A stretch of DNA of 64,000 nucleotides, taken from Picrophilus oshimae DSM 9789 (GTDB taxonomy: Archaea > Thermoplasmatota > Thermoplasmata > Thermoplasmatales > Thermoplasmataceae). The notes under the pieces were generated by a model. The model searched no databases. It was not told where the DNA came from and saw only the letters and a program-made list of their open reading frames with translations. Positions 21,865-53,549 of this stretch are shown one piece after another. How positions within the stretch are numbered: position 1 is the first letter of the stretch; every line of letters begins with the position of its first letter. The stretch lies in contig NZ_FWYE01000003.1 of assembly GCF_900176435.1 (NCBI RefSeq), forward strand, positions 1-64,000, in the 5' to 3' direction. The translations under genes were made by a program, and so were the position numbers.

Positions 21865-22521
21865 TTAAATGTTCCCATTTATATAAGACCTTATTGAGAT
21901 CAAAAAATTTACAAAATCATCTTTTTTTAATAAACCAGTGTTCACATTTCTTGGGCTTGGGTGGTATGAACAGTATAATCTTATATTGTTTATATCATAA
22001 TAAGCAAAATTTTTGAACTTTATATTTTTTGTATCTACATTCTCAGTCTTTAAATAATTAATATATGAATCAAATGCTATTCTTCCAAGTACAAGAACGG
22101 CCCTTAGATTAACCATGGATCTTATTTCATTGAATAAAAAAACTGAGCAGTTTTTTAATTCGCACTTCAAAGGTTTATTTTCAGGCGGTGCGCACTTAAG
22201 AGCCAGTGTTATATAAGAATCAATGTAGATTAATCCATCGTCCCTGCTCCTTGATTCGGGCTGGTTTGTTATGCCTGCAGAGTAAAGCGATGAAACAAGA
22301 AAGTCAGAGCTTTTATCGCCCGTGAATATCCTGCCGGTTCTGTTTCCGCCATGCGCCGCCGGTGCCAGGCCTATTATAAGCAGTCTTCCATTTATGTCTC
22401 CATATCCGGTTATTGGCCTTGACCAGTATTCCTCGTTGTATTTTTTATGTTTTTCAACAAATTCCCTGTATTTTATTAATCTATCGCATTTCGTGCATCC
22501 TATTATTTCATCATTAATCAT
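21865..22521 (-). CDS. Uracil-DNA glycosylase, family 5 (UDGb)
   Basis: A 218-residue glycosylase. Family-5 motif 1 GLAPAAHGGNRTGRIFTGD is intact (no catalytic Asp/Asn, as usual for UDGb), and motif 2 is YHPSPRN. Four cysteines fit the [4Fe-4S] site: GCTKC near residue 10, KCAPPENKP and the later KNCSVF. It removes uracil and other deaminated bases from DNA, a pressing need at high temperature and low pH. Compare the cysteine-poor family-4-like domain at 52.6 kb. Confidence 0.92.
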   Translation of the reverse strand: MINDEIIGCTKCDRLIKYREFVEKHKKYNEEYWSRPITGYGDINGRLLIIGLAPAAHGGNRTGRIFTGDKSSDFLVSSLYSAGITNQPESRSRDDGLIYIDSYITLALKCAPPENKPLKCELKNCSVFLFNEIRSMVNLRAVLVLGRIAFDSYINYLKTENVDTKNIKFKNFAYYDINNIRLYCSYHPSPRNVNTGLLKKDDFVNFLISIRSYINGNI

Positions 22522-51411: not shown

Positions 51412-52593
51412 GTGGAATTGAATGTCGACATTTATGAAAAAAGAAGCTGGGACTATCTTGACAGTGTTTCAATCATAGCACTCGCCTCCTCATTTTTTAT
51501 GTGGGGCGTTGCACTGAGCATAGCGCCGTTGATAACAACATGGCCTTTTATACCTGTTAAATATGATGTGTTTATAATAGCCACATCACCTGCAGGTCTG
51601 CTATTTGGTAATCTTTTTCTCGGCATATTCTCAGATCGTTTTGGCAGAAAGCGCTTATTCATGTTAACTGTAGTCATTACTGCAATAGGTCTTTTAATAA
51701 TAGCACTTTCATATTCGCTTTTATTAATAATACCTGGAATCTTCATGGCCGAATTTGGGCTTGGCGGTGATGAAACTGTTTCTCTTGCATACATTGCCGA
51801 GATGCTGCCAAAACGCTACCGTGGCACGGCCATTGCAGAAACAACAAACATGGCAAATATAGCAATAACCATAATGGCAGGAATATTCATCTTTGTAAAT
51901 TACTCATTATACAATGAAAAGGTATCACTGCTAATAATTGCAATACTGGGTTTTATAATAGCATTCTTTTCAAGGTTAAAAATCAGGGAGAGCATAAGAT
52001 GGGAGGCATATCATAAAGAAAAGCCTGATAAAAACTTATTTAGATACTTACCGCTTGGCTTTATGGGCATTGCAATAATAGTTGGCTTTGCATTCTCTGA
52101 TCTTGTGCTTGGTCCATTCGAGTTTCCAAAATATTCTGCAATAATAATATTTTTCTCGGTTCTTGCCGAGTCTCTCACAGGTATAATTGCAGGTTTAATT
52201 CTTGGCCGCTCAAAAAGGAAAAATCTTGCCCTGTTTGGATTCACAGGTCTTTTTGTATCCTGGCTTTTCCTTGTGATATTTCTAAAAGATGTGCTTTTTA
52301 GCATTTCCCTGTTGATAATAATATTAATAATCAATGGCGTCACAGGTGAGTTTGGCTGGATGGCACGTGGCATGCTGGAACCTGAAAATTTTCTAACGTC
52401 ATTTAGGGGCACCGGTGTTGGCATTGTTAGATCCATTGGATATTTAATATACATATTCACAGTATTCGCGCTTTATAATAGCAGTATTACGGTTTATGCA
52501 TACTATTTACTCATCATATATTTAATAGGCTTTGCAGGTGCAGTAATATACATGCTCTATGGAAGGGAAACAAATAATATATTAATTCATTGA
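51412..52593 (+). CDS. MFS transporter under TPP control (thiamine-related)
   Basis: A 393-residue, 12-helix MFS protein (GNLFLGIFSDRFGRKRLFML is the loop 2-3 motif; GLGGDETVSLAYIAEMLPKRYRGTA follows). The TPP riboswitch just upstream indicates uptake of thiamine or a precursor; TPP-regulated MFS carriers are known in Thermoplasmatales. Start is GTG 51412, set by the riboswitch-embedded GGAGG. The 3' end overlaps the convergent Nudix-UDG gene by 7 nt. Confidence 0.9.
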   Translation: MELNVDIYEKRSWDYLDSVSIIALASSFFMWGVALSIAPLITTWPFIPVKYDVFIIATSPAGLLFGNLFLGIFSDRFGRKRLFMLTVVITAIGLLIIALSYSLLLIIPGIFMAEFGLGGDETVSLAYIAEMLPKRYRGTAIAETTNMANIAITIMAGIFIFVNYSLYNEKVSLLIIAILGFIIAFFSRLKIRESIRWEAYHKEKPDKNLFRYLPLGFMGIAIIVGFAFSDLVLGPFEFPKYSAIIIFFSVLAESLTGIIAGLILGRSKRKNLALFGFTGLFVSWLFLVIFLKDVLFSISLLIIILIINGVTGEFGWMARGMLEPENFLTSFRGTGVGIVRSIGYLIYIFTVFALYNSSITVYAYYLLIIYLIGFAGAVIYMLYGRETNNILIH

Positions 52594-53549
52594 TTTTTTA
52601 TTCTGTTAATCTCATTTTTTAATTTTATAAAATCATTCTCCATTTTGCTAAGCACGGTTTTTGACCTCAACGCTGCCGCAGGATGATATGTAATAAAATA
52701 TCTTTTGTTTATAATCGTTCCATGGTTATTTTTTATGTCATTGATCCCAAGCAAAGACTGTGCTGCTATTCTTCCAAGAATTACTATGATCTTGGGGCTT
52801 ATTACATCAAGCTGCCTCTTCAGATATGGAAAACAGGCATCTATTTCAGATTTATCCGGAACCCTATTTTTTTCAGGGTAAAACTGAACAACGCTTGTTA
52901 TGTAAACGCTCTCCCTGTTTATATTTATCATTGAAAGCATGGAATTTAATATCCTTCCGCTCCTGCCAACAAATGGTCTTTTCATTTCATCCTCAGTTTT
53001 TCCTGGCGCCTGGCCAACGAAAACGATCTCTGCATTGTAATTACCCTCGCCTGGAACAAAATTCCTGCTGAGCCTCCAGGTCTTTATCATATCAGGTAGC
53101 TTCATGTATTCCATGTTTATCTCGTTAATTGCATCCCTTCTTGTAAGGTACTTTTCCGCGTAATAAACCATGTCCTTCTGGTTTATGTATCTTAGCCTCC
53201 TCAGAAGCTCGTGATAGTTCAGCCATTCATAAGAAACATGCTCCTTTGAAATTTTTATCTCGTTATTATTGTACTCTGCAAGAAACATCTTTGTATGCTT
53301 GTTTATAATTTCATCGCCTTTGTTAAATGAGTAGTTCATTGTATAAGAAAAGAAGGCTTCAATATCATTTTTGTCTATCATTATGTTTGTTTCCTCAAAC
53401 GTTTCCCTTATCGCCGCATCAAATTCATCCTCGTTTTTTTCTATGTGCCCCTTTGGAAAATCAAGCCAGCCCTCTGACCTTAAAAGAACAAGGTACTCAT
53501 ACTCAACATCTTTTTTGTATATAATAATACCATAACTGTACTCGTCCAT
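52587..53549 (-). CDS. Fusion of Nudix hydrolase and family-4-like uracil-DNA glycosylase
   Basis: 320 residues from ATG 53549. Residues 1-135 are a Nudix domain (GHIEKNEDEFDAAIRETFEE, box at 34-56), most like Ap4A hydrolases. Residues 150-320 match family 4 UDG: VPGEG, VFVGQAPGKTEDEMKRPFVG, NRVPDKSEIDACFPYLKRQL and TYHPAAALRS. Family 4 enzymes use four Cys for a [4Fe-4S] cluster, but this whole protein has a single Cys (239). Motif 1 is GQAPG rather than GEAPG. The upstream frame to 53705 adds non-homologous sequence. Confidence 0.9.
   Translation of the reverse strand: MDEYSYGIIIYKKDVEYEYLVLLRSEGWLDFPKGHIEKNEDEFDAAIRETFEETNIMIDKNDIEAFFSYTMNYSFNKGDEIINKHTKMFLAEYNNNEIKISKEHVSYEWLNYHELLRRLRYINQKDMVYYAEKYLTRRDAINEINMEYMKLPDMIKTWRLSRNFVPGEGNYNAEIVFVGQAPGKTEDEMKRPFVGRSGRILNSMLSMININRESVYITSVVQFYPEKNRVPDKSEIDACFPYLKRQLDVISPKIIVILGRIAAQSLLGINDIKNNHGTIINKRYFITYHPAAALRSKTVLSKMENDFIKLKNEINRIKNQ

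What the first reader, a model, noticed from the sequence alone, without database searches (positions are those of the whole stretch)
52587..53549. Nudix-UDG fusion whose glycosylase half has lost the iron-sulfur ligands
One 320-residue frame joins a complete Nudix box (residues 34-56) to a family-4-like UDG (residues 150-320). Family 4 enzymes bind [4Fe-4S] through four Cys; here the entire protein contains a single Cys (239), and the expected Cys positions near residues 152, 155 and 223 are Pro, Ile and Phe. Motif 1 is GQAPG, not GEAPG. A repair enzyme physically linked to a nucleotide-pool enzyme would couple uracil removal to pool cleaning, and the cluster-free fold may be an adaptation to an acidic cytoplasm.
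Basis: partly seen in the sequence, partly recalled or inferred. Interest (0 to 1): 0.75.

Follow-up and report, generated by a model that had tools for sequence, protein, structure and literature searches.

The report
Iron-free Nudix–uracil glycosylase fusion enzyme
A real gene in an acid-loving archaeon joins a nucleotide-cleaving enzyme to a DNA-repair enzyme that has lost its usual iron-sulfur cluster, and the same fusion turns out to be a conserved family shared with the tiny Micrarchaeota (archaea of a group known to live on acid-loving hosts), apparently not described before.

Summary
Observation confirmed. Window 52587-53549(-) encodes one 320-aa protein: an Ap4A-hydrolase-type Nudix domain with all catalytic residues, plus a family-4-like uracil-DNA glycosylase (UDG) domain with one Cys (239); three of four cluster ligands are gone and motif 1 is GQAPG. 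It is not an error or misassembly. The same fusion, with the same losses, occurs in a second species of the genus, in Ferroplasma, in a paralogue in the same genome, and in 80 of 196 Micrarchaeota genomes searched. dN/dS is 0.05-0.11. All 43 distinct fusions examined lack the cluster, and nearly all carry a fixed package: E41 to Q, N80 to S, KCR to QF[FY] (Thermus numbering), while H155, N89, E47 and F54 stay. It replaces the free Fe-S UDG in the genomes checked. AlphaFold gives a confident model (pLDDT 95.7, pTM 0.92); the halves match family-4 UDG and Ap4A hydrolases. Not supported: 'acid adaptation' (the same genome keeps Fe-S EndoIII-like proteins and a Cys-bearing family-5 UDG; equally acidophilic relatives keep Fe-S UDG) and 'pool cleaning' (fold points to Ap4A-type substrates). 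Best reading: a new cluster-free, bifunctional subfamily with a rewired base pocket; activities inferred, untested.

The parts
52587..53549 (-). CDS of the Nudix-UDG fusion protein, 320 aa (P0001)
   Evidence: orthologue with the same start in G001, 80% identical; dN/dS 0.075
53181..53534 (-). Nudix domain (residues 6-123), Ap4A-hydrolase type
   Evidence: Pfam NUDIX E 5e-14; best PDB sequence match 1kt9 Ap4A hydrolase, E 7e-12; Foldseek to Ap4A hydrolases TM 0.80-0.88 of target
53382..53450 (-). Nudix box, residues 34-56 (GHIEKNEDEFDAAIRETFEETNI); G34, E40, R48, E49, E52, E53 invariant in 31 fusions
53106..53186 (-). long bridging helix, residues 122-148, between the two halves
   Evidence: AlphaFold model, DSSP
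52611..53075 (-). family-4-like UDG domain (residues 159-313)
   Evidence: TIGR00758 163 bits, cut-off 125; 4zbx E 3e-36; Foldseek 4zbx E 2.5e-16, TM 0.82 of target
53076..53078 (-). Trp158, in 30 of 31 fusions, just after the place where Fe-S relatives have CxxC
53001..53015 (-). motif 1, GQAPG (179-183); Gln180 replaces the Glu of family 4
52863..52904 (-). motif 3, YITSVVQFYPEKNR (216-229): Ser219, Gln222, Phe223 replace Asn80, Lys83 and the third Cys ligand; Asn228 (N89) kept
52833..52835 (-). Cys239, the only Cys, at the fourth ligand position; kept in 29 of 31 fusions
52665..52685 (-). motif 2, HPAAALR (289-295): catalytic His and DNA-intercalation loop kept

Best explanation
The gene encodes a member of a conserved, cluster-free family of bifunctional enzymes. 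SHOWN: one chain joins an Ap4A-hydrolase-type Nudix domain with a complete catalytic set to a family-4-like UDG domain; three of four [4Fe-4S] ligands are absent throughout the family; base-pocket residues E41, N80, K83 (Thermus numbering) are replaced as a nearly fixed set (Q, S, Q); both halves are under purifying selection; in the genomes checked it takes the place of the free Fe-S UDG. INFERRED: the UDG half flips a deaminated base (uracil is the first candidate) out of DNA and cuts the glycosidic bond, with His289 stabilising the leaving base, Asn228 placing the water, Glu186 and Phe193 shaping the pocket, and the HPAAALR loop filling the gap in DNA. The loop that the cluster pins in Fe-S enzymes is held instead by protein packing (W158, QF[FY]P). 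The Nudix half is an active Mg2+-dependent hydrolase of a dinucleoside polyphosphate or similar nucleotide. The fusion keeps the two at a fixed ratio and place; a direct chemical link between the two reactions is not shown.
For: Domains and cut-offs. Family: same-genome paralogue P0002, same-genus species, Ferroplasma acidarmanus Fer1 and other Thermoplasmata, 80 of 196 Micrarchaeota genomes with both halves in one open frame (my count of the listed full-length rows). One clade in the UDG tree, 100/98*, and in the full-length tree, 100/96*. Site table: catalytic Nudix residues 31/31; His289, Glu186, Phe193 31/31; Asn228 30/31; Gln180 30/31; Ser219 29/31; Gln222 29/31; Phe223 30/31. dN/dS 0.05-0.11 over the whole gene in four pairs. 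Model pLDDT 95.7, pTM 0.92; folds match 4zbx and Ap4A hydrolases. Replacement: the window's genome has fusion, paralogue and a family-5 UDG but no free Fe-S UDGa; Ferroplasma-type genomes have fusion plus family-5 UDG, and ARM-1 and four other Micrarchaeota have the fusion as the only UDG-superfamily match. Roles of the pocket residues: PMC5387724, PMC10359453 and PMC10776899.
Against: No activity has been measured. In Thermus UDGa, E41Q alone cuts k2/Km by about three orders of magnitude and N80 changes by over 40-fold (PMC5387724); in UdgX, N91A and K94A are inactive and K94A unfolds (PMC10776899). This family has changes at all three places, so uracil excision may be weak or the substrate may differ. 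Genomes of Ferroplasma and Picrophilus type also have a family-5 UDG that could do uracil repair. The Nudix substrate is a guess from fold. Atomic coordinates of the model were not available, so the packing that replaces the cluster is inferred from conservation.
Confidence: 0.62

Rival explanations
1. The UDG half has changed substrate: the Q/S/Q pocket no longer reads uracil through the Asn80 amide but accepts a wider or different set of deaminated bases (hypoxanthine, xanthine, oxidised pyrimidines).
For: The three pocket changes are fixed together and are not a simple by-product of cluster loss: other Cys-less DPANN UDGs (L157-159, L174) keep E, N and K. Asn80 reads N3/O4 of uracil in Thermus UDGa (PMC5387724). 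Families 2, 3 and 5 act on several deaminated bases (PMC5387724), and BdiUng-like enzymes have wide specificity (PMC8307549).
Against: Ser at N80 also occurs in Fe-S homologues with otherwise normal motifs (L147, L151, L155). Paralogue P0002 and L046 keep Asn. In several Micrarchaeota it is the only UDG-superfamily gene found, so a uracil role is expected.
Confidence: 0.2
2. The UDG half is a catalytically weak or dead DNA- or uracil-binding module that brings the Nudix hydrolase to DNA.
For: Mutations at E41, N80 and K83 equivalents strongly reduce or abolish activity in Thermus UDGa or UdgX.
Against: His155, Asn89, Glu47, Phe54 equivalents and the HPAAALR loop are conserved in 28-31 of 31; two Micrarchaeota keep the Cys-less UDG with no Nudix domain (L142, L143), which a mere targeting module would not explain.
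Confidence: 0.13
3. One reading: the Nudix half cleans the dNTP pool (dUTP, 8-oxo-dGTP) while the UDG half removes uracil, and the cluster was dropped as an adaptation to an acidic cytoplasm.
For: The catalytic Nudix box is intact; Picrophilus- and Ferroplasma-type archaea are extreme acidophiles (established knowledge).
Against: Nearest relatives by sequence and fold are Ap4A hydrolases; a dUTPase-fold protein is separately present in most genomes; EndoIII-like proteins and the family-5 UDG keep their Cys in the same genome; other acidophilic genera of the family keep Fe-S UDGa.
Confidence: 0.08
4. Artefact: misassembly, frameshift or sequencing error.
For: None found.
Against: Independent assemblies of many species carry the same join and the same substitutions; purifying selection; one confident fold.
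Confidence: 0.01

Closest known systems
Family 4 UDG (UDGa), e.g. Sulfolobus tokodaii 4zbx, Thermus thermophilus 1ui0
   Same: Sequence (TIGR00758 163 bits; 4zbx E 3e-36), fold (TM 0.82 of target), motif 2 HPAA with catalytic His, Asn89, Glu47, Phe54
   Different: Three of four Cys ligands missing; motif 1 GQAPG not GE[AG]PG; Asn80 to Ser; KCR triplet to QF[FY]; N-terminal Nudix domain
Ap4A hydrolases (Nudix; C. elegans 1kt9/1ktg, Chlamydia CT771, human NUDT2)
   Same: Closest by sequence and fold; catalytic Nudix box; conserved S-x-EH-x4-W segment
   Different: Fused to a glycosylase; N55 and T50 in the box of this copy; substrate untested
BdiUng (Blr0248, 5gn2), UDG-superfamily enzyme of Bradyrhizobium
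   Same: From memory, a UDG-superfamily enzyme without an Fe-S cluster
   Different: Only E 0.38 by sequence; not fused; not the same family
UdgX
   Same: Derived from family 4; changed motif 1
   Different: UdgX has GEQPG, an inserted R-loop with His109, and keeps Asn91 and Lys94; the fusion has none of these
MutY/MUTYH
   Same: A DNA glycosylase fused to a Nudix-fold domain
   Different: HhH glycosylase with Fe-S cluster; the Nudix-like domain is C-terminal, non-catalytic and reads 8-oxoG (PMC9266487); here it is N-terminal with its catalytic residues intact

Membership tests
UDG family 4 (UDGa) | overall sequence similarity (TIGR00758 cut-off 125.3 bits) | tested here: met
   163.2 bits; but below the archaeal equivalog NF040953 (164.5 of 250)
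UDG family 4 (UDGa) | UDG fold closest to family 4 structures | tested here: met
   Foldseek best 4zbx, E 2.5e-16, TM 0.82 of target
UDG family 4 (UDGa) | four Cys ligands of a [4Fe-4S] cluster | tested here: not met
   only C239 present; absence of the other ligands conserved in the family
UDG family 4 (UDGa) | motif 1 GE[AG]PG | tested here: not met
   GQAPG; Gln in 30 of 31 fusions
UDG family 4 (UDGa) | Asn80 that reads uracil N3/O4 | tested here: not met
   Ser219 here; Ser in 29 of 31, Asn in P0002 and L046
UDG family 4 (UDGa) | catalytic His155 (motif 2) and Asn89 (motif 3) | tested here: met
   H289 31/31, N228 30/31
UDG family 4 (UDGa) | excision of uracil from ss and ds DNA | not testable with these tools
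   needs assay
Nudix hydrolase superfamily | Nudix box with catalytic G, E, R, E, E, E | tested here: met
   invariant in 31 of 31; T50 and N55 depart from the strict consensus at non-catalytic places
Ap4A hydrolase (NUDT2-like) | nearest fold and sequence among Nudix enzymes | tested here: met
Ap4A hydrolase (NUDT2-like) | hydrolysis of Ap4A | not testable with these tools
   needs assay
UdgX | R-loop with nucleophilic His109 and motif GEQPG | tested here: not met
   no insertion after motif 3, GQAPG
BdiUng-like UDG | sequence relationship to Blr0248 | tested here: not met
   E 0.38 over 68 residues only
UDG family 5 (UDGb) | motif 1 GLAPA and grouping with UDGb | tested here: not met
   UDGb forms a separate clade, 100/100*; the window's own UDGb is another gene, P0003

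The most novel reading that the evidence does not exclude
A repair glycosylase family that gave up its Fe-S cluster and rebuilt its base pocket (Q/S/Q) for a different or wider set of lesions, and whose activity is tied through a bridging helix to a Nudix domain that binds or destroys the alarmone Ap4A: an alarmone-linked DNA glycosylase shared between acidophilic Thermoplasmatales and the Micrarchaeota.
Probability: 0.15. Interest if true: 0.75.

Novelty: new variant of a known kind. Interest (0 to 1): 0.52.

Why it matters
Family 4 UDGs are textbook Fe-S repair enzymes, and what the cluster does in them is debated (structure, loop positioning, redox signalling). A natural, conserved lineage that keeps the fold and the catalytic His/Asn but has no cluster gives a direct test of what the cluster is for. 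The fixed Q/S/Q pocket is a natural version of changes that nearly abolish activity in Thermus UDGa or UdgX, so its enzymology would show how a UDG pocket can be rebuilt. The fusion may be the only UDG-superfamily enzyme in many Micrarchaeota, and its sharing with Thermoplasmatales adds a DNA-repair gene to the traffic between the two groups. No paper found in the held library describes it, but that library lacks most subscription journals.

Tried and rejected
Error or misassembly: rejected by orthologues. BdiUng membership: rejected. UdgX: rejected (no R-loop). Origin of the UDG half from a source other than the Fe-S UDG of the same family of Thermoplasmatales: the quick tree suggested it, but a tree joining the fusions with those Fe-S UDGs was even more likely, and the careful tree leaves it open, so no claim is made. 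Direction of transfer: not settled. Thermoplasmata fusions form one side of a branch (87/89); the Nudix half groups with Thermoplasmatales free Nudix proteins (95*, quick tree), while the nearest unfused UDG is from a Micrarchaeota genome (L146). dUTPase-substitute idea: rejected, dUTPase-fold proteins are present in most of these genomes. The EndoIII Fe-S loop profile PF10576 gave no hits in any genome, a sensitivity problem of a 17-column model; replaced by reading the HhH-GPD proteins directly. Viral contigs: no fusion. A free Nudix in Acidiplasma (L062) ends 60 bases from a contig end with no UDG remnant visible. Whether the fusion is limited to acid habitats could not be tested from record titles.

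Full report
WHAT IS THERE. Window 52587-53549 on the minus strand is one open frame of 320 codons plus a TGA stop. The genome (G000, 1.53 Mb in 6 contigs, window G+C 37%) looks like Picrophilus; that name is my inference from size, composition and neighbours, not a database label. Pfam finds NUDIX at residues 6-123 and UDG at 166-303, both well over their cut-offs, and NCBIfam places the second half in UDG family 4. There is one Cys (239). The Nudix box spans 34-56 with all catalytic residues, with T50 and N55 as departures at non-catalytic places.

IT IS NOT AN ERROR. The own genome has a second fusion, P0002, 45% identical, with none of the four Cys ligands. A second species of the genus has an 80% identical copy with the same start; dN/dS between them is 0.075, with dS near saturation, and three other pairs give 0.05-0.11 over the whole gene. 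A scan of one genome per species found full fusions in Ferroplasma acidarmanus Fer1, other Thermoplasmata, and many Micrarchaeota including Candidatus Micrarchaeum A_DKE and ARM-1. Among 196 Micrarchaeota genomes, 80 have a match over both halves in one open frame (counted by me from the listed rows). Among 117 genomes of the window's order, the fusion is confined to two genera: the window's own (2 of 2) and one that appears to be Ferroplasma (8 of 10) (that the second genus includes Ferroplasma acidarmanus rests on the identity of the L007 and L040 proteins). Patterns used for the named scan lie in the Nudix half, so fusions with other Nudix sequences could have been missed.

WHAT IS CONSERVED AND WHAT IS CHANGED. 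In 31 aligned fusions every catalytic Nudix residue is invariant (G34, E40, R48, E49, E52, E53), as are S101, E103, H104 and W109. In the UDG half, H289 (Thermus H155), E186 (E47) and F193 (F54) are invariant and N228 (N89) is in 30 of 31. These are the catalytic His, the thymine-excluding Glu, the stacking Phe and the water-placing Asn of family 4 (PMC5387724). Against that, Q180 replaces Glu41 in 30 of 31, S219 replaces Asn80 in 29, Q222 replaces Lys83 in 29, and F223 replaces the third Cys in 30. The fourth Cys stays in 29. None of the 38 Fe-S family-4 sequences in my set with the four Cys has Gln at 41, and none has the QF[FY] triplet. Ser at position 80 does occur in three Fe-S Micrarchaeota sequences (L147, L151, L155), so that change alone need not kill activity. 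Other Cys-less family-4-like proteins of DPANN archaea (L157-159, L174) keep Glu, Asn and Lys. Cluster loss and pocket change are therefore separable, and cluster loss is not tied to the Nudix fusion. Two Micrarchaeota have Cys-less UDGs of this clade with no Nudix domain (L142, which still begins with what looks like a scrap of it, and L143).

STRUCTURE. AlphaFold2 on an alignment of 30 fusions gives mean pLDDT 95.7 and pTM 0.92, with a 27-residue helix (122-148) bridging the halves. Foldseek against the PDB puts the UDG half nearest family-4 UDG 4zbx (TM 0.82 of target) and the Nudix half nearest Ap4A hydrolases (TM 0.80-0.88 of target). Sequence searches agree. Coordinates could not be inspected, so what fills the cluster site is inferred: W158 (30 of 31), F223 (30 of 31) and an aromatic at 224 (30 of 31) are fixed in the fusions; the Fe-S relatives have Cys and Arg/Lys at the last two.

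EVOLUTION. Fusions and Cys-less relatives form one clade in a careful UDG tree (100/98*), with L146, an unfused Micrarchaeota UDG that keeps CxxC but not the other two Cys, as sister (97/95*). The full-length tree separates all fusions from concatenated unfused pairs (100/96*) and makes the Thermoplasmata fusions one side of a branch (87/89). So the fusion most likely arose once and passed between the two groups; ARMAN-type Micrarchaeota are known to live with Thermoplasmatales and to exchange genes with them (PMC5498576). The direction is not resolved. Each group has its own stable gene order: in Picrophilus- and Ferroplasma-type genomes the gene faces a major-facilitator transporter; in Micrarchaeota it follows an exosortase/archaeosortase-family gene, ARM-1 included. 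Transfer, if that is what it was, is therefore old.

ROLE IN THE CELL. The window's genome has three UDG-superfamily genes: the two fusions and a family-5 UDG; no free Fe-S UDGa. Ferroplasma-type genomes have the fusion and a family-5 UDG. ARM-1 and four other Micrarchaeota have the fusion alone; A_DKE also has a MUG-like ORF. None of the nine Micrarchaeota genomes from which I fetched Fe-S UDGs is among the 80 with a fusion. The fusion thus stands in for the Fe-S UDG. That argues for a working glycosylase, but single changes at these pocket sites cost 40-fold to 1000-fold in Thermus UDGa (PMC5387724) or inactivate UdgX (PMC10776899), so reduced rate or changed substrate is a serious rival.

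ACID ADAPTATION. Not supported. The same genome keeps two HhH-GPD proteins with the EndoIII-type four-Cys loop (L205, L220) and a Cys-bearing family-5 UDG. Other genera of the same family keep the four Cys of UDGa.

VERDICT. It works like a Nudix hydrolase joined to a family-4 UDG (inference from anatomy); it should not be filed as an ordinary family 4 UDG because three defining features (cluster ligands, GE[AG]PG, Asn80) were tested and not met. New variant of a known kind.

Noticed in passing
window 21865-22521 (-): A 218-aa family-5-like UDG (motif GLAPA) with its Cys residues intact, in the same window; it groups with family 5 (100/100*).
   Followed up: partly
L002:997-1977 (G000 contig C1, 41193-42173): Second Nudix-UDG fusion in the same genome, 45% identical; keeps Asn80 and Lys83 equivalents, has GQSPG and none of the four Cys. 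Its place in the trees is unstable (with Thermoplasmata in the full-length tree, with Micrarchaeota in the UDG tree).
   Followed up: partly
L044:1368-2984, L041:1369-2967, L061:1487-2983, L059:1433-2989: In Micrarchaeota the fusion gene directly follows an exosortase/archaeosortase-family membrane-protein gene, with archease divergent upstream in two loci tested; conserved order, functional link unknown.
   Followed up: partly
L146:965-1534: Unfused Micrarchaeota UDG with GMAPG, CxxC kept, third and fourth Cys lost: a half-way form, sister to the fusion clade.
   Followed up: partly
L157, L158, L159, L174: Other Cys-less family-4-like UDGs in DPANN archaea with normal Glu/Asn/Lys pocket: separate cluster losses.
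   Followed up: no
L129 (Candidatus Micrarchaeum A_DKE): MUG/TDG-like ORF (GINPHPGS), about 14 kb from the fusion gene.
   Followed up: no
L062:2995-3420 (Acidiplasma aeolicum VT): Free Nudix protein 54% identical to the fused Nudix half, in a genome with only a family-5-like UDG match; possibly a fusion that lost its UDG half, but a contig end lies 60 bases downstream.
   Followed up: partly
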